A stretch of DNA of 27,156 bases, from the NCBI GenBank assembly GCA_002898615.1, contig BEIB01000007.1:1-27156 (forward strand), given 5' to 3'. Positions 8,285 to 16,865 of this stretch are shown in pieces. The notes beneath the pieces were generated by a model. It saw nothing but the letters and a program-made list of their open reading frames with translations, did no database searches and had not been told where the DNA came from. Both the position numbers and the translations under genes were made by a program. Numbering within the stretch: the stretch's first letter is position 1; each line of letters starts with the position of its first letter. This stretch comes from a bacterium HR25 (GTDB lineage: Bacteria > Chloroflexota > Dehalococcoidia > SM23-28-2 > HRbin24).

Positions 8285-9238
8285 ATGTCCCGGTTATTGG
8301 CGCAGATACTGGGGGAGGCGCGTCGCGCTCTCGCCCTGGCCGGCATCATGGTGGCCGGAGGCCTCGCCCTGGCGGTGGGGCTGTCGGCGGCCGCCAGCGC
8401 CTCCGTCCCCCGGGCGGAGGGGACGGCCACCCCTCCGCTGGCATCCCTGACGGGGACGGGGGCTGAGGAGACCGGCCAGGCCCTGACATCGCCCCTGCCC
8501 GCCCCGTCCCCTGCCGGCGAGGCTGCCCGGGAGGGAACCGTAGCCTCGGCGGCGATGCCCCAGACGGCGCCTGAGGGGCCCGCCGTCACGCCCGGGCCCA
8601 CGCCCACCGTCACCGCCGGGCCGGCGGACGCCCCGGGCCCGGAGGACCCCCGGGCCACCGTGCGGGCGGCCCGGGCCCGTCAGCCCAGACACTATCGGCC
8701 GCCCTCCCTCCCGGCAGGGACGGAGGAGCAGGACCGGCCCCCGGCATCAGCCCGCCCGGGCCGCCTGCCTCTGCCGGTGGAGGGCGCCTGGACCGTGACC
8801 TGCGGCCCCCACTGTGGCCTCCACCAGGGCGTCCACGCCTACGCCCTCGACTTGGTCCGCCGCGATGGCGCTACCGCCGGCGCGCCCGTCTGGGCGCCCG
8901 TGGACGGCGAGATCACCGCCCTGGCCGGCTCCACCACCGCCTATTGTCAGGGGCAGTGGGTCTCCGGAGCGGTGGCCGGCGCCTCCCTGGTGCTGGACTT
9001 CCGTCTGCCGGGAGGAGAGCACGCTCGCCTGCGGCTGGTCCACCTGGACAGCGCCTCCATCCCCGCCTCTCTTCGCCCCGCCGGGGATCCGGTGCCCGTG
9101 CGAGCGGGGACATACCTGGGCCGCCTGGCCGACATCGGCCCGGGCTGTAGCCACCTGCACGTGGCGCTCACGGTCATGAACGGGTCAGGGGAGGCGCCGG
9201 TGCCCATCAACCTGCAAGGCCGGTTCCTGGCTTACTGA
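8285..9238 (+). CDS. Secreted or membrane-anchored M23 (LytM-like) protein with long Pro/Ala-rich linker
   Basis: A 317-residue protein. A basic N-terminus and a hydrophobic stretch (about residues 17-40) form a signal peptide or anchor. Residues 41-160 are a Pro/Ala/Thr/Glu-rich low-complexity spacer suited to crossing a cell wall. Residues 165-300 match an M23 domain: H184 with D189 (HAYALD), H253 (LVHLD) and the H290-L-H292 pair. The first motif has four residues between His and Asp instead of the usual three, a form I associate with a divergent M23 branch; activity is likely but not certain. Four Cys in the domain (C173, C177, C221, C288) could form disulfides. The start ATG 8285 lacks a good Shine-Dalgarno site. 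It lies 183 bases upstream of the archaellum operon on the same strand. Confidence 0.78.
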   Translation: MSRLLAQILGEARRALALAGIMVAGGLALAVGLSAAASASVPRAEGTATPPLASLTGTGAEETGQALTSPLPAPSPAGEAAREGTVASAAMPQTAPEGPAVTPGPTPTVTAGPADAPGPEDPRATVRAARARQPRHYRPPSLPAGTEEQDRPPASARPGRLPLPVEGAWTVTCGPHCGLHQGVHAYALDLVRRDGATAGAPVWAPVDGEITALAGSTTAYCQGQWVSGAVAGASLVLDFRLPGGEHARLRLVHLDSASIPASLRPAGDPVPVRAGTYLGRLADIGPGCSHLHVALTVMNGSGEAPVPINLQGRFLAY

Positions 9239-9421: not shown

Positions 9422-10000
9422 ATGAAGAGACTCAGGAGACTGCTCTCAGGGCAGGAGGGGATAACGGGGCTGGAGACGGCCATCATCCTCATCGCCTTCG
9501 TCATCGTCGCCTCCGTCTTCGCCTTCGTCGTCCTCTCCACCGGCCTCTTCTCCGCCGAGCGGGGCAAGGAGACCGTCTTCGCCGGCCTCAACAAGGCCCA
9601 GGCCAACCTGGAGCTCCACGGCTCTGTGGTGGTGACCGCCTCCGGTTCTCCTCTGGTGCCCGACGAGATAACCTTCTCGCTGGCCCTGGCCGCCGGCGGC
9701 ACCGCCGTCAACATTGATCCCTCCGCCACCACCAACTCCGTCGTCATGAACTACATCGACCAGAACGCCCGCGTCTCCGACGTTACTTACGCCGTCACTT
9801 GGATCCAGGGCGATGGCGACAGCCTCCTGGAGCCCGGCGAGCTGGCCGAGGTCTCCATAACACTGCCCACCACCCCCGGCAGCCAGAACCTGGCGGCCAA
9901 CGAGCACTTCACCATCGAGGTGGTGGCCCCTCAGGGCGGCACTATGCTCATCGCCCGCACTATGCCGGCGGCTATCGACGCCGTCATGGATCTCCACTAA
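9422..10000 (+). CDS. arlB: Archaellin 1 (archaeal-type flagellin, class III signal peptide)
   Basis: A 192-residue filament subunit. The N-terminus is a textbook prearchaellin: a short basic leader (MKRLRRLLSGQEG) with predicted cleavage after G13, then ITGLETAIILIAFVIVASVF, the hydrophobic helix that packs in the filament core. Mature residues up to about 70 match euryarchaeal archaellins of the Methanospirillum type (GLExAI.LIAFVIVA.VF..VVL.TG.F). The outer beta domain (about 75-160) is variable and lacks Cys. The C-terminal segment NEHFTIEVVAPQGG...IARTMPAAIDAVMDLH is the conserved archaellin ending, which distinguishes it from pilins. A strong ribosome site precedes it, as expected for a highly expressed gene. 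Residues 11-72 are identical to archaellin 2. The processing peptidase (PibD/FlaK) is not in this window. Confidence 0.92.
   Translation: MKRLRRLLSGQEGITGLETAIILIAFVIVASVFAFVVLSTGLFSAERGKETVFAGLNKAQANLELHGSVVVTASGSPLVPDEITFSLALAAGGTAVNIDPSATTNSVVMNYIDQNARVSDVTYAVTWIQGDGDSLLEPGELAEVSITLPTTPGSQNLAANEHFTIEVVAPQGGTMLIARTMPAAIDAVMDLH
9452..9636 (+). repeat. 185-bp perfect direct repeat, copy 1 (archaellin 5' region)
   Basis: Bases 9452-9636 are identical, base for base, to 10043-10227 (offset 591). The repeat encodes the signal-cleavage region, core helix and first outer residues of both archaellins. Divergence begins abruptly on both sides. Confidence 0.95.
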
Positions 10001-10012
10001 GGGAGCAGGCAC

Positions 10013-10663
10013 ATGAACAGAATCAAGCGGTTCCTGGCCGGTCAGGAGGGGATAACGGGGCTGGAGACGGCCATCATCCTCATCGCCTTCGTCATCGTCG
10101 CCTCCGTCTTCGCCTTCGTCGTCCTCTCCACCGGCCTCTTCTCCGCCGAGCGGGGCAAGGAGACCGTCTTCGCCGGCCTCAACAAGGCCCAGGCCAACCT
10201 GGAGCTCCACGGCTCTGTGGTGGTGACGGACCTCAACGAGTGGAACGACCCGGGGACCGGCTGTGTTGAGCAGGCCGGCTCCGACGGCGAGCCCGACCGG
10301 GTGGTCTTCTCCCTGGCCCTGGCGGCTGGTGGTGCCCCCGTCAACGTCGACCCTGCCGCCACCATCAACACCGTCGCCATCAACTACGTGGACCAGGACG
10401 TGCGGGTGGCTGACGTCTCCTACACCGTTACCGTGGTCCAGGGCGATAGCGACAACCTGCTGGAGCCGGGGGAGCTCTTCGAGGTGACCGTCAACCTGGC
10501 AGGGGACGACGACATCTCTACGGGCTGCCCCGTCAACACCGGCAGCCTGGACCTGGGGACCAACGAGCACTTCACCATCGAGGTGGTGGCCCCCCAGGGC
10601 GGCACCATGCTCATCGCCCGCACCATGCCCTCCGCCATCGACGCCGTCATGAACCTGCACTAG
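10013..10663 (+). CDS. arlB: Archaellin 2 (archaeal-type flagellin, with Cys-bearing insertions)
   Basis: A 216-residue archaellin starting 12 bases after archaellin 1 stops, with a weaker GGGAGCAGG ribosome site. Residues 11-72 (cleavage site after G13, ITGLETAIILIAF helix) are identical to archaellin 1. The outer domain is related but carries two insertions, TDLNEWNDPGTGCVEQAGSDG (near residues 72-92) and DDDISTGCPVNTGS (near 165-178). Each supplies one cysteine, C84 and C172, in a similar T-G-C setting. These are the only Cys in the mature chain, so a disulfide linking the two loops, or an intersubunit bond, is plausible. The C-terminus (NEHFTIEVVAPQGG to DAVMNLH) is again the conserved archaellin ending. 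Like multi-archaellin archaea, the filament may be mixed, with one subunit minor or at the base. Confidence 0.92.
   Translation: MNRIKRFLAGQEGITGLETAIILIAFVIVASVFAFVVLSTGLFSAERGKETVFAGLNKAQANLELHGSVVVTDLNEWNDPGTGCVEQAGSDGEPDRVVFSLALAAGGAPVNVDPAATINTVAINYVDQDVRVADVSYTVTVVQGDSDNLLEPGELFEVTVNLAGDDDISTGCPVNTGSLDLGTNEHFTIEVVAPQGGTMLIARTMPSAIDAVMNLH
10043..10227 (+). repeat. 185-bp perfect direct repeat, copy 2 (archaellin 5' region)
   Basis: Identical to 9452-9636. The 3' ends of the two genes encode almost the same peptide but differ at several synonymous third positions. The perfect 5' identity is therefore best explained by recent gene conversion or duplication rather than by protein-level selection alone. 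Confidence 0.95.
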
Positions 10664-10878
10664 GGACGGAGGACGGGCCGCAAGCCAACTCAAGGATGTG
10701 AGAGTGGACCGCAGGTCACAGAAAGGAGGAGGTGGAGAGCTAACCACGGTCTGGCAAGCAACCGGGGGTGCTGCTGGCGGAGGGGCGCTGCTGCAGCGGT
10801 GCTCGCTGCCGTCCGCAGCACCCCCCTTTTGGGGGCCCCAGCGGGGCGGGACTACTCCCTGAGCGAGGAGAGCCGTCA
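10664..10878 (+). other. Spacer between archaellin and motor genes
   Basis: These 215 bases separate the archaellins from the rest of the operon; the other spacings in the operon are under 40 bases. They hold a strong but apparently unused ribosome-binding-like site AAAGGAGGAGG near 10722-10732, whose nearest start (GTG 10732) would give only a three-codon frame. The intrinsic-terminator-like hairpin follows. A third archaellin remnant is not visible. The ribosome site for the next gene (AGGAG, 10866-10870) ends the spacer. Confidence 0.5.
10764..10830 (+). terminator. Intrinsic-terminator-like hairpin inside the archaellum operon
   Basis: Arms GGGGGTGCTGC (10764-10774) and GCAGCACCCCC (10815-10825) are perfectly complementary over 11 bp and are followed by CTTTT (10826-10830). 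The 40 bases between the arms can themselves fold (CGCTG-CTG-CAGCG hairpin). It lies 100 bases after the archaellin 2 stop and 49 bases before the next start. The loop is larger than in a textbook terminator and the T-run is short, so partial termination is more likely than a complete block. No clear promoter is seen between it and the next gene, so the motor genes would depend on read-through. Confidence 0.6.
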
Positions 10879-11376
10879 GTGGACAAGGTCCTGGTCACCC
10901 TTCTCCTGCTGGTAGCTTCGGCGGTGGCCAGCTCCATCGTGGTGGGGACAGTCATGCCAGCGGTGCACCGGGCAGGCAGCGACATCATCGGTGTCGGCTC
11001 AGAGGTCAGCAGCCGCATCCGGACCGATGTGCGTATCATAGAGGTCGCCTCTTCGGCCGGCAGCGATACCGTCAAGGTGTGGGTCAAGAACGTCGGCTCG
11101 GTCAAGATAGGCAACGTCGACCGCACGGACGTCTTCTTCGGCGAGGTAGGAGCCTTCCAGCGCATCACCTACGACCCCTCCAGCAACTGCTCCGACCCCG
11201 CCCTGCGCACCGCCGCCTGCTGGCAGTACGCCCTGGAGAACGACACCGAGTGGAGCCCCTTCGCCACGGTGCGGCTTACCATCTATCTGACGGCCGGCCT
11301 CCAGGCAGGCAAGGACTACACCGTCAAGCTGGTGCTGCCCTCGGGGCTCTCCGTGGAGACTGTCTTCTCGCTGTGA
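10879..11376 (+). CDS. ArlF/ArlG-family archaellum stator protein (first copy, ArlG-like)
   Basis: A 165-residue membrane-anchored protein. The start is GTG 10879, eight bases after AGGAG. The longer frame would read through the terminator hairpin and is Cys/Pro-rich nonsense. One N-terminal helix (residues 4-26, VLVTLLLLVASAVASSIVVG) is followed by an extracytoplasmic beta-sandwich. The pattern TDVRIIEV...VKVWVKNVGSVKI...DVFFG matches archaeal FlaG ('TDF.II...Y.VKNTG...D.F.DG'). The C-terminus (VKLVLPSGLSVETVFSL) also resembles the FlaF ending. A loop with C104 and C114 may be disulfide-closed. In archaea ArlF and ArlG form the stator that anchors the motor to the outer envelope. There it binds the S-layer; the anchor in this bacterium is unknown. 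The family is well supported; the F versus G assignment is tentative. Confidence 0.75.
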   Translation: MDKVLVTLLLLVASAVASSIVVGTVMPAVHRAGSDIIGVGSEVSSRIRTDVRIIEVASSAGSDTVKVWVKNVGSVKIGNVDRTDVFFGEVGAFQRITYDPSSNCSDPALRTAACWQYALENDTEWSPFATVRLTIYLTAGLQAGKDYTVKLVLPSGLSVETVFSL

Positions 11377-11391
11377 AGAGAGGCCCTGGCC

Positions 11392-11895
11392 ATGGAGCAG
11401 ACCATTCCCTCCCTCATCCTGGCGGCGGCCATGATCATGACCTCCCTGGTGGTGGCGGGAGCCGCCAGGACCTACTGGAGCAGCACCGCGCCTTCCCTCA
11501 AGGAGGCCGTCGCCACGGCGGAGCAAAGGCTGGGGACGGAGCTCAGCGTGACCGACAAGTCCCTCAACGCTGGCGGCGACCGCGTCACCGTCACCCTGGA
11601 GAACCGGGGACGTACCCCCATAGCCGACCCCCGACTCATGGACCTGATGGTGAGCTATACCGATCAGGCCGGCCAACGGCACTCCTCCTGGTATCCCTAC
11701 GCCGATGGCCCCCTGCAACAGAACACCTGGACCATCACCGCCATCCAGGGAGACCGCCGCAACCCCGGCATGGTGGACCCCGGCGAGACGATGGTCCTGG
11801 AGGTCTGGCTGGACCCGCCAGTGGACACCGCCAACACGGACCGCTGGCTAGTAGTGAGCACCCCCAGCGGCCTCAGTTATACGGTCTACTTCTGA
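11392..11895 (+). CDS. ArlF/ArlG-family archaellum stator protein (second copy, ArlF-like)
   Basis: A 167-residue protein 15 bases after the previous gene, with GAGAGG eight bases before ATG 11392. An N-terminal helix (residues 6-24) anchors a beta-sandwich with the strands ELSVTDKSLNAGGDRVTVTLENRGRTPI. This is the 'V.N.G.T.L' signature of archaeal FlaF/FlaG domains. The ending WLVVSTPSGLSYTVYF is like that of FlaF and like that of the preceding gene, so the two are probably ancient paralogues. It has no Cys. Neither stator protein has a basic class III leader, as in archaeal ArlF/G, where the helix is retained. Together they fit the ArlF-ArlG heteromer. Insertions around the middle (DQAGQRHSSWYPYADGP; TAIQGDRRNPGMVDPGE) make the domain longer than archaeal versions I remember. 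Confidence 0.7.
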   Translation: MEQTIPSLILAAAMIMTSLVVAGAARTYWSSTAPSLKEAVATAEQRLGTELSVTDKSLNAGGDRVTVTLENRGRTPIADPRLMDLMVSYTDQAGQRHSSWYPYADGPLQQNTWTITAIQGDRRNPGMVDPGETMVLEVWLDPPVDTANTDRWLVVSTPSGLSYTVYF

Positions 11896-11914
11896 GAGAA
11901 AGGAGGCTTCCCAC

Positions 11915-12532
11915 ATGGAGCTGAACAACCGCCTCGCCAGTCTGGAAGAGGACTTCAACATCCTGAAGAATGAGATAAAGCAGGTGCTCCTGGACATACG
12001 GGAACAGATCCTCCACTGGGAGAGCCCCTTCGCGGACTACACGCCCCCGGCCGCCACAGGCGCCAAGGAGCGAGAGGAGCCGGCCCGGCCCGTCGCTCCC
12101 CCCAAGATGGAGGAGCCGGAGCCCCCCGCCCCGGGGCCGGAGGAGGAGCGTCCCGCCCCTGACGGCCTGGACGGCGACCTGCCGGACTTCCGCGGCCTGC
12201 CCGTGCTGACCCGCCACCAGACGGGGCAGATGGACATAGCCACCCTCAGCGCCCTGGCCAACTGGGCCTGGTGGGCCGTCCGCCGCGTGGGACGACGCCG
12301 CGCCGAGGCCCTGGTCCGCGTCTACCAGTTGAGCGGCTACCTCTCCGAAGAGACCGGACAGGCCCTGGGCCAGCTCCTGGACCTGGCGGACGAGGAGGAG
12401 CCACCCGCCAAGGTCACCATGCGGGACTGCACCCTGGCCCTCCTGCGGCTGGACGCCGCCCTGGGGGCGCGAGGCGGCGCCAACATGGGCCTCCTCGCCC
12501 TCCTGTGGGAGGGAGACCGCCAGGAGCTCTGA
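11915..12532 (+). CDS. ArlC/D/E-type archaellum switch protein
   Basis: A 205-residue cytoplasmic protein with a strong AAAGGAGG site eight bases before ATG 11915. Residues 1-35 form a heptad-like coiled coil (LNNRLASLEEDFNILKNEI). Residues about 40-90 are a Pro/Glu-rich linker. Residues 93-160 match the FlaD/FlaE domain: archaeal versions read 'L..D...L..W..FLVE.VG...L...L.YY..IGWIS', and here it is IATLSALANWAWWAVRRVG...LVRVYQLSGYLSEE. A helical tail with a Cys follows. In Euryarchaeota ArlC, ArlD and ArlE form the ring that connects the motor to chemotaxis through CheF. Here one protein combines the coiled-coil and E-type domain. No CheF or Che gene is in the window, so the input to this switch is unknown. 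Its place, just before ArlH, matches archaeal operons. Confidence 0.75.
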   Translation: MELNNRLASLEEDFNILKNEIKQVLLDIREQILHWESPFADYTPPAATGAKEREEPARPVAPPKMEEPEPPAPGPEEERPAPDGLDGDLPDFRGLPVLTRHQTGQMDIATLSALANWAWWAVRRVGRRRAEALVRVYQLSGYLSEETGQALGQLLDLADEEEPPAKVTMRDCTLALLRLDAALGARGGANMGLLALLWEGDRQEL

Positions 12533-12570
12533 CAGCCCAGCCCCGGACTGCGGGAGGAAGGTAGCACGGC

Positions 12571-13308
12571 ATGGACGAGATAGAAGAGCAGGACAGCGTC
12601 CAGGTACACAACGTCGTCTCCACGGGCAACCGGGAGATAGACCAGAAGATGGGGGGAGGCATACCTGTGGGCTCCCTCACCCTCATGGAGGGCGAGTCCG
12701 GCGCCGGCAAGTCGGTGCTGGCCAACCAGCTCACCTGGGGCGCCCTGCGGGAGGGAAGGAGGGTCGTCCTCTATACTACCGAGAACACCTTCCCCAGCTT
12801 CGTCCGTCACATGATCAGCCTCAACCTGGACGTGACGGACTATCTCCTCATGGGCCGCCTCAAGCTCTACCCCATGCCCCTCTCCAAGCCGGACTGGCCC
12901 GTGCGCCGCGTCCTCCAGGCGGTAGAGGAGAGCATGCGCCGCCTCCCCGCCGACTTCTTCGTCGTGGACTCCCTCACCGGCCTGGGCGCCCATGCCCTCC
13001 TGCGGGAGACCGACGAGAGCAGCCTCATCGGCTTCTTCGAGAAGCTGCGGGAGGTGTGCGACCAGGGCAAGACGGTGGTGACGGTAGTCCACTCCTACGC
13101 CTTCGACGAACGGATGCTCATCCGCCTCCGTTCCCTGTGCGATGCTGACCTGCGCCTGCGCATCGAGGAGGTGGGAGACCAGCTCGTCAAGGTGCTGGAG
13201 GTGGCCAAGGTGAGAGGGGCGGAGAAGAAGACCGGGAACATAGTCGCCTTCGATGTGGAGCCGGGCATCGGCATGCGCATCATCCCTGTCAGCAAGGCCA
13301 AGGCCTAG
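12571..13308 (+). CDS. arlH: ArlH, KaiC-like ATPase regulator of the archaellum motor
   Basis: A 245-residue RecA/KaiC-fold protein, the usual ArlH length. Walker A is GESGAGKS (41-48). Walker B is DFFVVDSLTGLGAH (D133). The substrate loop STGNREIDQKMGGGIPVGSLTLMEG at the start is typical of KaiC/ArlH. ArlH in archaea binds ATP, docks on ArlI and is thought to gate assembly or switching by autophosphorylation and ATP-dependent oligomerisation. The start at ATG 12571 follows GGAGGAAGGT eight bases upstream. It lies 38 bases after the switch gene and five bases before arlI, the canonical archaeal order. ArlH is not part of bacterial type IV pili, so its presence argues strongly for an archaellum rather than a pilus. 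Confidence 0.92.
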   Translation: MDEIEEQDSVQVHNVVSTGNREIDQKMGGGIPVGSLTLMEGESGAGKSVLANQLTWGALREGRRVVLYTTENTFPSFVRHMISLNLDVTDYLLMGRLKLYPMPLSKPDWPVRRVLQAVEESMRRLPADFFVVDSLTGLGAHALLRETDESSLIGFFEKLREVCDQGKTVVTVVHSYAFDERMLIRLRSLCDADLRLRIEEVGDQLVKVLEVAKVRGAEKKTGNIVAFDVEPGIGMRIIPVSKAKA

Positions 13309-13313
13309 GAGCG

Positions 13314-15023
13314 ATGCCGCGGGTAGAGCTACCGTTCTCTCAGAACGGGCACTCGGCGGAGTCCCACAATGGCCAGGGGCTCCTGGAGTGCGGCCTCTAC
13401 AAGCTCCTCCCGGCACCCCTCCAGGAGGTGACCCGGGAGAATCTGCACCTGCTGGAGTACCTCCACCACGTCCCCCTGAAGGAGATGGGCATCCCTCAGT
13501 TCTACCCCCGCCTCACGCCCGATATGCAGGGGATGGAGCGCCCCAACCTCATCTACCCCATAGGGCGGGGGGTCTTCGCCCATATCTGTCCCAGCCCCAG
13601 CGGCTCCCGGGACATGTACATACCGGTGGAGCCGGTGATGGACGCCACCCCTCTGGCGCCTCTCCTCCGTGAAGTGGAGGAGCGCCTCTTCGACTACGCC
13701 GACCTGATAGCTGAGGCAGAGACGCCGGAGGAGCAGCGGGAGGTCCTGCTGCGCTGCCTGGACAAGGCCATCAAGGGGGAGAACGGCCACCGCGACCTCC
13801 TGGCCAGGCTCCTCTACAAGGCGAAGCCCCTGAAGGTAGACGAGCGAGAGCGCTACGCCATCAACTATCTGATGGTGCGGGACAAGATAGGCCTCGGCGT
13901 GCTGGAGCCCCTCATCCAGGACCGCTACATCGAGGACATAAGCTGCAGCGGCCTGGGGCCCCTGTTCATAGAGCACAAGATCTTCCGCAGCCTGCAGACC
14001 AGCATCGTCTTCGATGACGACGAGGAGCTGGACGCCTTCGTCATCCGTCTGGCGGAGCGGGTGAAGCGGCCCATCAGCATCGCCAGGCCCATCGTGGACG
14101 CCACGCTGCCCGACGGCTCCCGAATCAACATCGTCTACGGCCGTCACGTCTCTCAGCGGGGGAGCAACTTCACCATCCGTAAGTTCAGCAGCACCCCTCT
14201 CAGCGTCCTGGAGCTCATCGAGCGGGGCACCCTCAACTACGAGATGGCCGCCTACCTCTCCCTCATCCTGGAGGAGGGAATGAACGTCTTCGTGATGGGG
14301 GAGACGGCCTCCGGCAAGACGACGATGCTCAACGCCATCACTACCTTCATACCCATCAACGCCAAGATCGTCACCGTGGAGGACACCCCGGAGGTCCAGT
14401 TACCCCACCAGAACTGGGTGCGAGAGGTGGCGGCGGCCAAGGAGAAGGATGGCGCCGTCACCATGTTCGAGCTCCTGAAGGCTGCCCTCCGTCAGCGCCC
14501 CAACTACATCATCGTGGGTGAGATCCGTGGCGAGGAGGGGGCCATCGCCTTCCAGGCCATGCAGACTGGCCACGCGGTCATGAGCACCTTCCACGCCTCC
14601 TCCGTGGAGCGGCTCATCCAGCGTATCACGGGCAACCCCATCAACATCCCCAAGTCCTACATTGACAACCTGAACGTGGTGGTGGCCATGAACAGCGTCC
14701 GCCTGCCCGGGGGTCAGCTCGGCCGGCGGGCTGTCAGCGTGGCCGAGATCATAGGCTACGACCCCTCGTCCGATTCCTTCTCTTATGTAGAGATCTTCCG
14801 CTGGGATCCCATAACGGACTCCTTCATCTTCAGCGGCAAGATGAACAGCTACCTGCTGGAGAACAAGATAGCGCTGCGCCGCCGCATGCGGGACCGCCGC
14901 CAGATCTACGCTGAGTTGGACCGGCGGGCCCGCCTCCTCAAACGCCTGCACGAAAAGGGGGTGAAGGGCTATTACGAGCTTGTCGACGTCCTTGCCTCGG
15001 CCCAAAGACAAGGGCTCTTCTAG
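13314..15023 (+). CDS. arlI: ArlI, archaellum assembly/rotation ATPase (type II/IV secretion ATPase superfamily)
   Basis: A 569-residue motor ATPase. ATG 13314 lies five bases after the arlH stop, with AGGAG overlapping that stop. A long N-terminal region (1-180) precedes the N-terminal domain found in FlaI (about 180-300, NYLMVRDKIGLGVLEPLIQDRYIEDI). The ATPase core has Walker A GETASGKTT (329-337), the Asp box VEDTPE (355-360), Walker B IIVGEIRGEE (399-408) and the His box TGHAVMSTFH (418-427). All catalytic motifs are intact. The signature GEIRGEE with ERLIQRITGNPINIPKSYIDNL is of the archaeal FlaI/GspE-2 type rather than PilB/PilT. The absence of tetracysteine zinc motifs also separates it from PilB. 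In archaea this hexamer drives both filament assembly and rotation. It overlaps arlJ by 44 bases. Confidence 0.93.
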   Translation: MPRVELPFSQNGHSAESHNGQGLLECGLYKLLPAPLQEVTRENLHLLEYLHHVPLKEMGIPQFYPRLTPDMQGMERPNLIYPIGRGVFAHICPSPSGSRDMYIPVEPVMDATPLAPLLREVEERLFDYADLIAEAETPEEQREVLLRCLDKAIKGENGHRDLLARLLYKAKPLKVDERERYAINYLMVRDKIGLGVLEPLIQDRYIEDISCSGLGPLFIEHKIFRSLQTSIVFDDDEELDAFVIRLAERVKRPISIARPIVDATLPDGSRINIVYGRHVSQRGSNFTIRKFSSTPLSVLELIERGTLNYEMAAYLSLILEEGMNVFVMGETASGKTTMLNAITTFIPINAKIVTVEDTPEVQLPHQNWVREVAAAKEKDGAVTMFELLKAALRQRPNYIIVGEIRGEEGAIAFQAMQTGHAVMSTFHASSVERLIQRITGNPINIPKSYIDNLNVVVAMNSVRLPGGQLGRRAVSVAEIIGYDPSSDSFSYVEIFRWDPITDSFIFSGKMNSYLLENKIALRRRMRDRRQIYAELDRRARLLKRLHEKGVKGYYELVDVLASAQRQGLF

Positions 15024-16485
15024 TAGGGTAGTCCCGCCCTTCGACCTCTTCTTTCACATGTCCTATCTGGCCTCCGTCATCACGGCGGGGATATCACGCT
15101 ACGCCCTCTTCGAGGCCGCCTCTTCCCTGCCCTATCCCTCCACGCGCTACTTCCGGGAGGTGCACCGCCTGGTCAAGGGGCTCAAGTATGACTACGCGGA
15201 GGCCTTCCGCATCGTGGGGGAGAGGGCGCGCGATGACAACGTCCGCTTCATGTTCCTCCGCCTCTCCTCCGCCCTCGCCTCCGGCGAGCCCATGGAGACC
15301 TTCTTCTGGCGGGAGGCCCAGATCCAGGGCGAGGCCTATGGCGAGGAGTACGAACGGCAGATCGAGTCCCTGCGCAAGTGGACGGACGCCTACAGCGCCC
15401 TCCTCGTCTCCGCTTCCCTGGTGGTCATCATCGCCTTCCTCACCCTGATGGTATACCACCTGCACGAGGCCATCCTCCTGCCCCTCATGGTCCTGGGCCC
15501 TCTGGCGGCCTTCGCCGGCGCCTGGATCATCGCCCGCGTGGCCCCTCAGGAGCCCATCACCCACCACATGGGCCCTGGCTCGCTCGAGCAGCGCCTGAAC
15601 GCCCTCCTGGCCAGGGTGCTGCTCCCCGCCGCCGTGGTACTGGCCGCCCTCCTCCTCCTCTTGCGGGCGGATGTGGGATGGATCCTCCTCACCACCGCCG
15701 CCTGTCTCGTCCCCATGGGAGCCGTGCAGATGTGGGACGAGCGCAAGATCCACCTGCGGGACATGGACATAGGCACCTTCGTGCGGGCCCTGGGAGGCAT
15801 GAGCCGGGCCATGGGCACCACCCTCACCGAGGCCCTCAACTACCTGGACAACCGCTCCACCGGCGCTCTGGCCGCGGAGGTGCGTCGGCTGCGGGCCTGG
15901 CTCCGCAGCAAGCTCCTGCCCGAGAACTGCTGGCACCACTTCGTCCAGGGCAGCGGCAGCGCCCTCGTGGAGCGCACGGTGCGGGCCTTCTGGGACGGCG
16001 TCAGCCGGGGCGGCGACCCCGCCGAGGTGGGTGTCCGCTCCTCGGCCTACGCCCTCAAGGTGGCCCTCCTCCGGGCCAAGCGCCGCACCGTGGCCGATAC
16101 CTTCTCCTGGCTCTCCTTCCCCCTGCACCTAGTGATAGTGGGGCTCCTCCTCTTCTCTCTGGAGCTGGTGGGCTCCTTCTCCAGGGCAGTCTCTGCCATG
16201 AACCTGCCGGAGATATCCCAGGACCAGCTCTCTCAGTTGCCTGCCATGCCCTTGCCAGGGGTGCTGGGCGTCCAGGGAGGGCTGGACATGGGCTTCCTCG
16301 CCGGCTTCATGAAGCTGGTGACGATAGCCCTCACCATAGCCAACGCTTACGCCGTCTACTCCGCCTACGGAGGCCACCCCTTCAAGCTCTTCTACCACGG
16401 TGGCATCATGCTGGCCATGACCGGCATGGCCTTCCTCATCGTACCCCGGCTCATGGACCTGCTCTTCACCACCATCATGGCGTGA
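14980..16485 (+). CDS. arlJ: ArlJ, polytopic membrane platform protein of the archaellum
   Basis: A 501-residue integral membrane protein of the FlaJ/TadC family, the platform on which ArlI turns. TTG 14980 is chosen as the start because the conserved FlaJ opening (DLFFHMSYLASVITAGISRYALFEAAS...YFREVHRLVKGLKYDYAEAFR) begins before the first ATG (15058), and no GTG lies between. The price is a 44-base overlap with arlI and a weak ribosome site, implying translational coupling. A soluble F domain (about 20-140) is followed by a helix pair (about 145-195), a helix pair (about 210-250), a second cytoplasmic domain (about 255-380), then three C-terminal helices: seven clear segments against about nine in archaeal ArlJ. 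Positively charged loops (RKWTDAYS, ERKIHLRDMD) are candidate ArlI-binding patches. The family is secure. Confidence 0.9.
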   Translation: MSTSLPRPKDKGSSSRVVPPFDLFFHMSYLASVITAGISRYALFEAASSLPYPSTRYFREVHRLVKGLKYDYAEAFRIVGERARDDNVRFMFLRLSSALASGEPMETFFWREAQIQGEAYGEEYERQIESLRKWTDAYSALLVSASLVVIIAFLTLMVYHLHEAILLPLMVLGPLAAFAGAWIIARVAPQEPITHHMGPGSLEQRLNALLARVLLPAAVVLAALLLLLRADVGWILLTTAACLVPMGAVQMWDERKIHLRDMDIGTFVRALGGMSRAMGTTLTEALNYLDNRSTGALAAEVRRLRAWLRSKLLPENCWHHFVQGSGSALVERTVRAFWDGVSRGGDPAEVGVRSSAYALKVALLRAKRRTVADTFSWLSFPLHLVIVGLLLFSLELVGSFSRAVSAMNLPEISQDQLSQLPAMPLPGVLGVQGGLDMGFLAGFMKLVTIALTIANAYAVYSAYGGHPFKLFYHGGIMLAMTGMAFLIVPRLMDLLFTTIMA

Positions 16486-16501
16486 AGGAGGAACGAAAGC
16501 G

Positions 16502-16855
16502 ATGCGATGGATCCTGCGCAAGAAGGAAGACCAGGCCAAGGGCAGCGACCCCATCGACCCGGCCCCGGCGCCGCCCCTGGAAGCCTCTGCACCCTATCAG
16601 CCTCCCCAGGACAGGGATTTGTGGAGGGAGCTAGGTCCCGAGGCGGGGGTGGAGACGCCCTCTAACGACGGCCTGTGGGCCGAAGAGGACGAAGGCCCCC
16701 AGGTGGATAGTGGCCTCCTGGATATCTTCCGGGAGGAGACGGCGATAAACGACTTCGACAAGCCCGTCCTGCCCGGCCTGGAGCCGGTGGACGCCGCCCA
16801 GCTACGGCGCCTGGCCGAAGAGGTGGCCTCCCGCCTCAAGCGTCGGGGACGCTGA
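16502..16855 (+). CDS. Unknown 117-aa acidic protein at the end of the archaellum operon
   Basis: A 117-residue protein 16 bases after arlJ, with AAGGAGG ten bases before ATG 16502, so it is clearly in the operon. I do not recognise it. It has a basic N-terminus (MRWILRKKE), a Pro/Asp/Glu-rich and probably disordered body, a short hydrophobic-acidic motif (DSGLLDIFREE, residues 69-79) and a C-terminal amphipathic basic helix (DAAQLRRLAEEVASRLKRRGR). There is no signal peptide, membrane helix or Cys. A cytoplasmic partner of ArlI/ArlJ or of the switch protein is possible. Archaeal operons that I remember end at arlJ, so this may be a bacterium-specific addition. Its stop codon lies in the stem of a hairpin shared with the convergent crotonase gene. 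Confidence 0.7.
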   Translation: MRWILRKKEDQAKGSDPIDPAPAPPLEASAPYQPPQDRDLWRELGPEAGVETPSNDGLWAEEDEGPQVDSGLLDIFREETAINDFDKPVLPGLEPVDAAQLRRLAEEVASRLKRRGR

Positions 16856-16865
16856 GCTCTCAGCG
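16850..16865. terminator. Hairpin shared by two convergent stop codons
   Basis: CGCTGAG (16850-16856), a 2-nt loop, then CTCAGCG (16859-16865). The TGA of the plus-strand 117-aa gene (16853-16855) and the TGA of the minus-strand crotonase (16860-16862) lie one in each arm. The stem is symmetric for both transcripts but has no T-tract; it could mark or protect both 3' ends. Seen directly; function inferred. Confidence 0.4.

What the first reader, a model, noticed from the sequence alone, without database searches (positions are those of the whole stretch)
9422..16855. Complete archaellum operon in a bacterial chromosome
Two archaellins, two ArlF/G stator proteins, an ArlC/D/E switch protein, ArlH, ArlI and ArlJ lie in near-archaeal order with tight spacing. 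The surrounding genes and signals are bacterial on both sides. ArlH, the ArlE-type domain and the archaellin C-termini separate this from type IV or Tad pili. All ATPase motifs are intact. The sequence shows a structurally complete rotary filament apparatus of archaeal type. I recall reports of archaellum loci in some Chloroflexota, so the class may not be wholly new, but I cannot check. Codon use and Shine-Dalgarno signals match the neighbours, so any transfer is old.
Basis: partly seen in the sequence, partly recalled or inferred. Interest (0 to 1): 0.95.

Follow-up and report, generated by a model that had tools for sequence, protein, structure and literature searches.

The report
Bacterial archaellum operon with overlooked part
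A bacterium, likely of the phylum Chloroflexota, carries the core gene set for the archaeal swimming propeller, as already published for its relatives, and the set ends with an unnamed gene whose family accompanies nearly every such bacterial gene set examined and would likely help hold the motor at the cell membrane.

Summary
Window 9422-16485 (+) encodes two archaellins, ArlG, ArlF, ArlCDE, ArlH, ArlI and ArlJ; ArlI scores 674.6 bits against a 550 cut-off. The class is not new: functional archaella in Chloroflexota are published (PMC12488501). In a tree the nearest row is JdFR-54, among bacterial rows.

What I did not find described is the last gene, 16502-16855, which has no Pfam or NCBIfam family. 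It belongs to a fast-evolving family with a variable N-terminus, a flexible linker and a conserved ~50-residue C-terminal domain. In leave-one-out tests the profile ranks the ORF after arlJ first in 51 of 62 loci. In 197 genomes of the likely host class, 36 of 37 with ArlI have the domain, against 3 of 160 without. It also occurs in some related archaea. Half of 62 members carry a membrane segment; in the 23 with a single one the C-terminus is predicted inside. Reviews say ArlCDE lacks a membrane tether; I propose that this family supplies one. No partner or function is shown, and the window's own copy has no transmembrane segment.

The parts
8285..9238 (+). Possible wall-peptidase-like gene upstream of arlB (M23/LytM-like His/Asp pattern by eye only); also directly upstream of arlB in L006 and L128; optional part
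   Evidence: 45% and 48% identity to two relatives, each on the strand of arlB and next to it; no Pfam match at E 0.5, no convincing PDB match
9422..10000 (+). arlB1, archaellin
   Evidence: PF01917 E 2.4e-25; TIGR02537 over cut-off
10013..10663 (+). arlB2, archaellin; 206 of its first 219 nt are identical to arlB1
   Evidence: PF01917 E 5.6e-23; identity count
10879..11376 (+). arlG, stator/filament protein (the ORF opens at 10768; GTG 10879 is the likelier start)
   Evidence: NF052591 ArlG E 3e-11, PF01917 41.8 bits; sequence around 10879
11392..11895 (+). arlF, stator protein
   Evidence: NF052590 ArlF E 9e-5, PF01917 E 7.7e-6; 48% to L006 ArlF
11915..12532 (+). arlCDE, switch/cytoplasmic ring protein: ArlC-like N-terminus, linker, ArlD/E-type C-terminal domain
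   Evidence: Alignment A3 of 22 rows; 6 of the 22 match PF04659
12571..13308 (+). arlH, KaiC-like ATP-binding motor protein
   Evidence: NF004723 FlaH 267.3 bits, cut-off 194
13314..15023 (+). arlI, motor/assembly ATPase
   Evidence: NF058587 674.6 bits, cut-off 550
14980..16485 (+). arlJ, membrane platform (overlaps arlI by 44 nt if its first start, TTG 14980, is used)
   Evidence: NF004703 ArlJ E 1.2e-115, under the cut-off
16502..16855 (+). Last gene of the operon: 117-aa member of an unnamed archaellum-linked family; conserved domain at 16706-16852
   Evidence: Leave-one-out profile E 1.4e-7, top of 149 ORFs; AAGGAGG begins in the arlJ stop; no Pfam/NCBIfam family

Best explanation
This is an arl2-type archaellum operon in a likely Dehalococcoidia-class Chloroflexota bacterium, predicted to build and rotate a swimming filament, and its last gene encodes a member of an unnamed protein family that accompanies nearly every bacterial archaellum operon examined here and likely tethers the cytoplasmic motor to the membrane. 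Shown: the gene set and its match to archaellum models; its nearest relatives among Chloroflexota archaellum loci; the family, its conserved C-terminal domain, its co-occurrence with ArlI and its usual position at the operon end. Established elsewhere for a relative (Litorilinea aerophila, PMC12488501), not here: that such operons make swimming archaella. Inferred: the ~50-residue C-terminal domain stays in the cytoplasm and docks on the ArlCDE/ArlH/ArlI complex; the linker gives slack; the N-terminus (a transmembrane helix, two helices with an outside stretch, or in the window a short basic segment) holds the complex at the membrane, so that the rotor can turn against a fixed ring. In Crenarchaeota the ArlX ring carries its own transmembrane helix; ArlCDE does not (PMC8978795, PMC12024892).
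For: Operon. Host and placement: in the ArlHIJ tree of 73 rows the row nearest to the window is L001 (JdFR-54), on a starred side of 39 rows whose other 38 are bacterial, with the archaea on the other side; the best ThiI of 151 genomes lies in the class that also holds the JdFR-54 genome. Family: leave-one-out profiles, training rows all under 45% identity, rank the ORF after arlJ first in 51 of 62 loci, 48 at E<0.01; five untrained loci with another gene order have it right after arlI. Co-occurrence: 36 of 37 genomes with ArlI (E<=1e-140) against 3 of 160 without (Fisher p 9e-35); across the phylum 4 of 4 with ArlI over the cut-off against 1 of 247, and 0 of the 126 genomes there with only a sub-cut-off relative of ArlI (by inference of Tad/pilus type). 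Of the 36, 34 lie within 3 kb downstream of arlI on its strand. Topology: 31 of 62 have a transmembrane segment; all 23 with a single one have more K/R after it than before it. Constraint: domain dN is below linker dN in all 13 pairs taken, some sharing a sequence. Published gap: 'ArlCDE ... [quoted passage not shown] likewise PMC8978795, passages).
Against: No partner, expression or phenotype is known. The window's own copy and 30 others of 62 lack a transmembrane segment; some (L056, L080) start acidic and need not bind membrane. AlphaFold gives one confident helix and no fold (pTM 0.29 and 0.40), with no significant PDB fold match. Six of the seven Archaeoglobi-type loci in the leave-one-out test were not top-ranked, nor were five others. 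The cross-domain test is top-ranked in only 12 of 21 and 29 of 51 loci. In 196 archaeal genomes the arl-linked domain is in about 16 of 121 with ArlI, so most archaea there do without it or have a form I cannot see. Chance matches reach about 24 bits: G156 lies in a sigma-factor-like frame and G445 in a nuclease/helicase-like frame (recognised by eye). In one genome (G503) the gene is unlinked, and L026 has room after arlJ but no match. I chose the training loci on sight.
Confidence: 0.55

Rival explanations
1. The last gene's product is a signalling or switch adaptor: it links chemotaxis (CheY) to ArlCDE, doing for bacterial archaella what CheF does in archaea.
For: PMC12488501 reports no CheF in Chloroflexota and suggests another protein may do the job. 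The family is archaellum-linked and mostly without a predicted fold, as adaptors often are.
Against: The family also occurs in archaea of a phylum in which CheF genes are often within archaellum loci, including some Archaeoglobi (passages). I recognised no CheY-binding feature, but tested none. The membrane segments in half of the members are not needed for this.
Confidence: 0.15
2. It is an assembly or polar-placement factor (chaperone or landmark for ArlI/ArlJ), not part of the running motor.
For: Position right after arlJ or arlI, fast-evolving N-terminus, forms without a membrane segment in half of the members.
Against: Near-perfect co-occurrence in bacteria and presence in some archaea fit a machine part at least as well.
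Confidence: 0.2
3. The operon is an archaellum relic or a non-rotating pilus in this lineage.
For: Expression and motility are untested; the ArlJ score is under the curated equivalog cut-off; the window row is a long branch.
Against: All frames and both P-loops are intact, ArlH, ArlF/G and ArlCDE are present, and ArlI is over the cut-off; a related operon makes swimming archaella (PMC12488501).
Confidence: 0.07
4. An archaeal fragment misassembled into a bacterial contig.
For: Read coverage cannot be checked; the arl stretch is 3-4 points lower in GC than its flanks; L040, labelled Fermentibacteria, shows that mislabelled archaellum contigs exist.
Against: The tree places the locus with Chloroflexota rows, not archaea; GC3 matches the two neighbours measured; L006 and L128 share the upstream gene next to arlB.
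Confidence: 0.02

Closest known systems
Chloroflexota archaella (Litorilinea aerophila; PMC12488501, Nat Microbiol 2025; SAR202 isolates, PMC10444878)
   Same: Same core genes; arlG before arlF (arl2 type); same phylum; ArlI model match; nearest tree rows are bacterial
   Different: arlCDE lies after arlF here (before arlG in 48 of 49 scored loci); no PilN, PilO or LysM match among the 19 window proteins scanned with Pfam, instead a wall-peptidase-like gene upstream; the text I read does not mention the terminal family
arl2-type archaella of Methanosarcinales, Archaeoglobi and Methanoxibalbensis
   Same: Same gene set and close ArlI (48-55% identity); part of them carry the same terminal family
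   Different: Archaeal hosts; the terminal gene can sit between arlH and arlI (L091)
ArlX of Crenarchaeota/Thermoproteota (single-TM cytoplasmic ring protein; PMC8978795, passages)
   Same: Proposed role and layout: N-terminal membrane segment with a cytoplasmic part at the motor
   Different: No sequence relation tested; the terminal family is a separate gene beside ArlCDE, and half of its members lack the membrane segment
CheF adaptor (arCOG02394; PMC4858521, passages)
   Same: Archaellum-linked adaptor idea
   Different: No sequence relation tested; the family occurs in an archaeal phylum where CheF genes are common

Membership tests
Archaellum (arl operon) | ArlI motor ATPase | tested here: met
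   NF058587 674.6 bits, cut-off 550; TadA model 163.7, cut-off 373
Archaellum (arl operon) | ArlH, the archaellum-specific ATP-binding partner | tested here: met
   NF004723 267.3, cut-off 194; NF052589 201.6, cut-off 215 not reached
Archaellum (arl operon) | ArlJ platform | tested here: met
   NF004703 E 1.2e-115, although under its equivalog cut-off (386.8 of 570)
Archaellum (arl operon) | Archaellins with class III N-terminus | tested here: met
   PF01917 and TIGR02537 over cut-off, two copies
Archaellum (arl operon) | ArlF and ArlG stator proteins | tested here: met
   ArlG over the PF01917 cut-off; ArlF slightly under it but E 9e-5 to ArlF and 48% to L006 ArlF; both under the NCBIfam equivalog cut-offs
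Archaellum (arl operon) | ArlCDE (or ArlX) ring/switch protein | tested here: met
   Aligned family of 22 rows, 6 of which match PF04659; the window's copy alone is sub-threshold
Archaellum (arl operon) | Prepilin peptidase for archaellins | not testable with these tools
   None among the window proteins scanned; no whole genome is held
Archaellum (arl operon) | Rotating filament and swimming | not testable with these tools
   Needs culture; shown for L. aerophila in PMC12488501
arl2 type | arlG before arlF | tested here: met
   Best models: 10768-11376 ArlG, 11392-11895 ArlF
Tad or type IV pilus | ATPase over Tad/PilB cut-offs | tested here: not met
   TIGR03819 163.7 of 373; PilB 68.5 of 676
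Terminal archaellum family (new, unnamed) | Conserved ~50-residue C-terminal domain | tested here: met
   Window copy E 1.4e-7 with itself left out; next ORF E 1.9
Terminal archaellum family (new, unnamed) | Lies at the end of, or inside, an arl operon | tested here: met
   16 nt after the arlJ stop; a convergent gene's coding end is at 16860
Terminal archaellum family (new, unnamed) | N-terminal membrane segment (half of the members) | tested here: not met
   Window copy: maximum 19-residue Kyte-Doolittle mean -0.37 ahead of the domain

The most novel reading that the evidence does not exclude
The terminal gene encodes the missing membrane tether of ArlCDE-type archaella: an overlooked machine part that came along when archaea handed the propeller to bacteria, keeps one docking domain constant and exchanges its membrane module, so that one motor can be anchored in very different envelopes.
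Probability: 0.3. Interest if true: 0.8.

Novelty: new variant of a known kind. Interest (0 to 1): 0.6.

Why it matters
The bacterial archaellum itself is published, so the operon alone adds one more member; what makes it more is the unlisted part. A near-universal but undescribed gene in bacterial archaellum operons would change the parts list of the machine. Two reviews say that ArlCDE has no membrane tether, and one adds that a model of rotation needs an anchor structure; this family is a concrete candidate that can be deleted and tested. It could also help to explain how an archaeal motor was fitted to bacterial envelopes. If it is only an adaptor or a placement factor, it is still a marker of archaellum operons that was easy to miss because its sequence changes so fast.

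Tried and rejected
Tad/T4P reading: rejected on ArlI scores. Archaeal misassembly: not supported, though coverage is unseen and GC is slightly lower. Known family for the terminal protein: none in Pfam or NCBIfam for the window copy, and no consistent family for the 35 members of A1 (seven families each, matched by 1 or 2 of 35; GltJ in 2, best E 2.6e-7, and MXAN_5187 in 2, which I take for low-complexity matches). The protein search, which needs shared 5-residue words, found one homologue, P0001 at 95%. By sequence the best PDB match is a designed coiled coil at E 0.004; by fold the only match has E 6.5. Outside stretch of the two-TM members: only sub-cut-off matches (L012 to PF13796 'Sensor' E 8e-4; L006 to NF041620 E 0.002); a likeness to SipW-type signal peptidases is recalled and unsupported. 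The upstream M23-like gene: no profile support, and one candidate zinc histidine is not conserved in L006, so I do not lean on it.

Literature: figures and supplements were not seen. PMC1914349's legend says that unnamed genes in its cluster drawings are 'hypothetical', and PMC4858521 linked 191 arCOGs to archaeal pili and archaella, so the gene may already stand in a drawing or table. For PMC12488501 I read the Results, the Discussion and passages; for PMC13319060 the outline, abstract and passages; for PMC4858521, PMC1914349, PMC8978795, PMC12024892 and PMC10444878 passages only. 'Not described' rests on these and on searches (all 10 allowed); most papers listed there I saw only as listings.

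Rows dropped before counts: 62 loci entered the leave-one-out test (61 of the 80 fetched loci plus the window). Left out: no arlJ match (L017, L034); arlJ runs off the contig (L018, L023, L046); no ORF found before the contig ends within 400 nt after the arlJ match (L002, L019, L024, L076); and 10 dropped on sight because the ORF after arlJ looked different (L022, L026, L036, L050, L053, L058, L062, L066, L072, L075). Of these 10, 7 then gave a match to the profile built without them; L022 and L050 (contigs ending soon after) and L026 (about 700 nt of room) gave none. A2 has 64 rows: L016 and L048 could not be cut out, and L029, L030 and L037 were left out as near-copies. The tree used 73 of 81 rows. 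Many genomes are the organisms of A2 rows; of the members later fetched and compared, 13 at arl loci with E<0.01 are at most 54% identical to any A2 row.
Full report
What was checked. Profile searches assign eight of them to archaellum parts: archaellins (PF01917 90.2 and 82.5 bits), ArlG (E 3e-11), ArlF (E 9e-5), ArlH (267.3 bits, cut-off 194), ArlI (674.6, cut-off 550) and ArlJ (E 1.2e-115, under its equivalog cut-off). The ArlCDE protein is sub-threshold alone, but it aligns at both ends with 21 relatives (A3), and 6 of the 22 rows match PF04659, the window not among them. The ninth ORF, 16502-16855, has no family. A convergent gene has its coding end at 16860, so the operon ends there. Of the neighbours, ThiI on the right and the gene at 8285-9238 on the left have Chloroflexota relatives; ten others and these were scanned only for family names. 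GC shows no sharp step, but the arl stretch averages 0.657 against 0.685 and 0.697 in the flanks. GC3 of the eight arl genes is 0.87-0.93, of the last gene 0.81, of the two neighbours measured 0.92 and 0.90.

Where it belongs. In a tree of ArlH, ArlI and ArlJ from 73 loci (quick method) the row nearest to the window is L001, 'Dehalococcoides sp. JdFR-54', and the window lies on a starred side of 39 rows whose other 38 are bacterial. All 16 archaeal rows form one starred group together with one row labelled Fermentibacteria (L040), probably a mislabelled archaeal contig. The window row is a long branch, so its exact place is unsure. The best full-length ArlI matches are 62-64% identical (partial matches reach 67%). 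ThiI, a neighbour gene, has its best match (64%) among 151 genomes of the phylum in G153, whose class also holds the JdFR-54 genome and where a relative of the window's Nudix gene follows ThiI. The host is therefore likely Dehalococcoidia-class Chloroflexota.

What is known. PMC12488501 (Results and Discussion read) reports 243 Chloroflexota genomes with archaellum genes, arlG before arlF, swimming and a cryo-EM filament structure for Litorilinea aerophila, and transfer from archaea with an arl2-like cluster. PMC10444878 (passages) reported the genes in SAR202 isolates earlier. The window operon is thus a further member of that class. Its order, B-B-G-F-CDE-H-I-J-terminal gene, differs from the usual: among the 49 loci where CDE, G and I could all be scored (some held twice) arlCDE lies before arlG in 48.

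The terminal gene. In the 80 loci fetched with ArlI a same-strand ORF usually follows arlJ closely. These proteins share little except a ~50-residue C-terminal domain, with a pattern like L-x2-[LI]-F-x-E-E ... L-x3-L-x2-V-x3-[ED]-L (alignments). I dropped 10 loci on sight, left out each remaining locus in turn with every training row at or above 45% identity, and searched all ORFs of the locus. The ORF in question ranked first in 51 of 62 loci, 48 at E<0.01; for the window it ranked first of 149 at E 1.4e-7. The 11 failures are L016, L021, L042, L043, L045, L047, L048, L056, L059, L061 and L063; six of them are Archaeoglobi-type (of seven such loci). Of the 10 dropped loci, 7 match the profile built without them, five of them directly after arlI where arlJ has moved.

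Co-occurrence. In 251 genomes across the phylum, ArlI over cut-off is in 4, and the domain (E<=0.01) is in those 4, each about 2 kb downstream of arlI, plus G156, whose match lies in a sigma-factor-like frame. None of the 126 genomes with only a sub-cut-off relative of ArlI has it. In 197 genomes of the likely host class, ArlI (E<=1e-140 to the window's) is in 37 and the domain in 39, 36 in common (Fisher p 9e-35). The missing one, G572, has a weak match (E 0.023) in the ORF right after arlI. The three without ArlI are G455 (the contig end holds part of arlJ and the gene), G489 (match broken by two stops) and G523 (part of a 1284-residue frame). Of the 36, 34 lie within 3 kb downstream of arlI on the same strand; G488 has it after arlJ in a split cluster; G503 has it elsewhere. 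These sets overlap with the organisms in the training alignment; 13 members at arl loci with E<0.01 are at most 54% identical to any training row.

Archaea. In 196 genomes of the Methanosarcina phylum ArlI is over cut-off in 121 and the domain in 24. By place, 15 genomes (17 loci) have it 1.8-2.8 kb downstream of arlI, and G409 has it between arlH and arlI. The other 8: G403 was at that distance in the genome search but was not found again; G442 is a partial match at 2.8 kb in a 435-residue frame; G445, G294, G290, G354, G396 and G331 are away from arlI. So the chance level is a few per cent of genomes, and some of the 16 are organisms of the training rows. A profile from bacterial members only ranks the archaeal gene first in 12 of 21 loci (7 at E<0.01), and one from archaeal members only ranks the bacterial gene first in 29 of 51 (13 at E<0.01); if all ORFs were equally likely under one would be expected in each test (several loci are close kin). 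Homology across domains is therefore supported for the set, not for every member, and the simplest reading is that the gene came with the operon.

Anatomy and mechanism. Of 62 members, 31 have a transmembrane segment; 23 have a single one, all with more K/R behind it than before it, which predicts the C-terminus inside; 8 have two, with about 100 residues between. The others start with short, often basic segments (window MRWILRKK). The domain changes more slowly than the linker: domain dN is below linker dN in all 13 pairs taken, several with saturated dS and some sharing a sequence. AlphaFold shows one confident C-terminal helix and otherwise no fold; Foldseek finds nothing significant. A docking domain on a flexible leash with an exchangeable membrane module suggests a tether. 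Reviews say that ArlX has a transmembrane helix, that ArlCDE has none, that the polar cap was proposed as an anchor for that reason, and that one model needs an anchor structure (PMC8978795 passages; PMC12024892 passages). I therefore propose that the family ties the ArlCDE/ArlH/ArlI complex to the membrane. This step is inference. My confidence is about 0.97 for the operon, 0.9 for the family as an archaellum-linked part, and 0.3-0.35 for the tether role.

Against this reading. Half of the members, the window's among them, lack a transmembrane segment. No partner is known. Most archaeal archaella in the sample show no such gene. The gene's place next to arlJ or arlI does not single out ArlCDE as partner. 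Adaptor and placement roles remain open.

Literature limits. Ten full-text searches and the text read did not mention such a gene. PMC4858521 (passages) names as archaellum components FlaI, H, J, F, G, archaellins and C/D/E. Figures and supplements were not seen, and PMC1914349 draws unnamed hypothetical genes in some clusters.

Novelty. The operon alone is a new member of a known kind. I file it as a new variant because of the undescribed terminal part, which it shares with its kin.

Noticed in passing
L086:6324-9813 and L087:7076-10567; also G597 and G499: Tandem arlI genes, two full-length ArlI ATPases side by side in one archaellum operon (L086, L087): possibly a two-subunit motor ring or separate assembly and rotation ATPases.
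   Followed up: partly
L040: Contig labelled Candidatus Fermentibacteria carries archaellum genes that group inside Methanosarcinales; probably a mislabelled archaeal contig rather than another bacterial phylum with archaella.
   Followed up: partly
window 8285-9238; L006:4124-5014; L128:1366-2004: Wall-peptidase-like gene directly upstream of arlB in three related loci; could open the cell wall for the filament, but no profile supports the peptidase reading.
   Followed up: partly
L103:1652-1951, L104:3680-4081: Unlinked second copies of the terminal family, small and soluble by eye, in a shared neighbourhood beside a gene that looks like degV (by eye), in genomes that also have the operon copy.
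   Followed up: partly
L109:4486-5712: The terminal family's domain forms the C-terminus of an enzyme-like ORF that looks like an acyl dehydratase (by eye); possibly a chance fusion after duplication.
   Followed up: no
G489:C60:14604-14732: Domain match interrupted by two stops in a genome without an ArlI match: possibly a relic after loss of the archaellum.
   Followed up: no
L006, L117, L118, L119: In this group the terminal protein seems to have two membrane segments (L006 by script; the others by eye) with an outside stretch that by eye resembles SipW-type signal peptidases (recalled; two searches found no such family).
   Followed up: partly
window 9422-10231: The two archaellin genes share 206 of their first 219 nt and diverge later, suggesting recent duplication or gene conversion of the filament-core part.
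   Followed up: no
L108 and L115 (G488): Split archaellum cluster: arlB-CDE-G-F-J plus terminal gene on one contig, arlH-arlI on another; a further unlinked family copy lies in L107.
   Followed up: no
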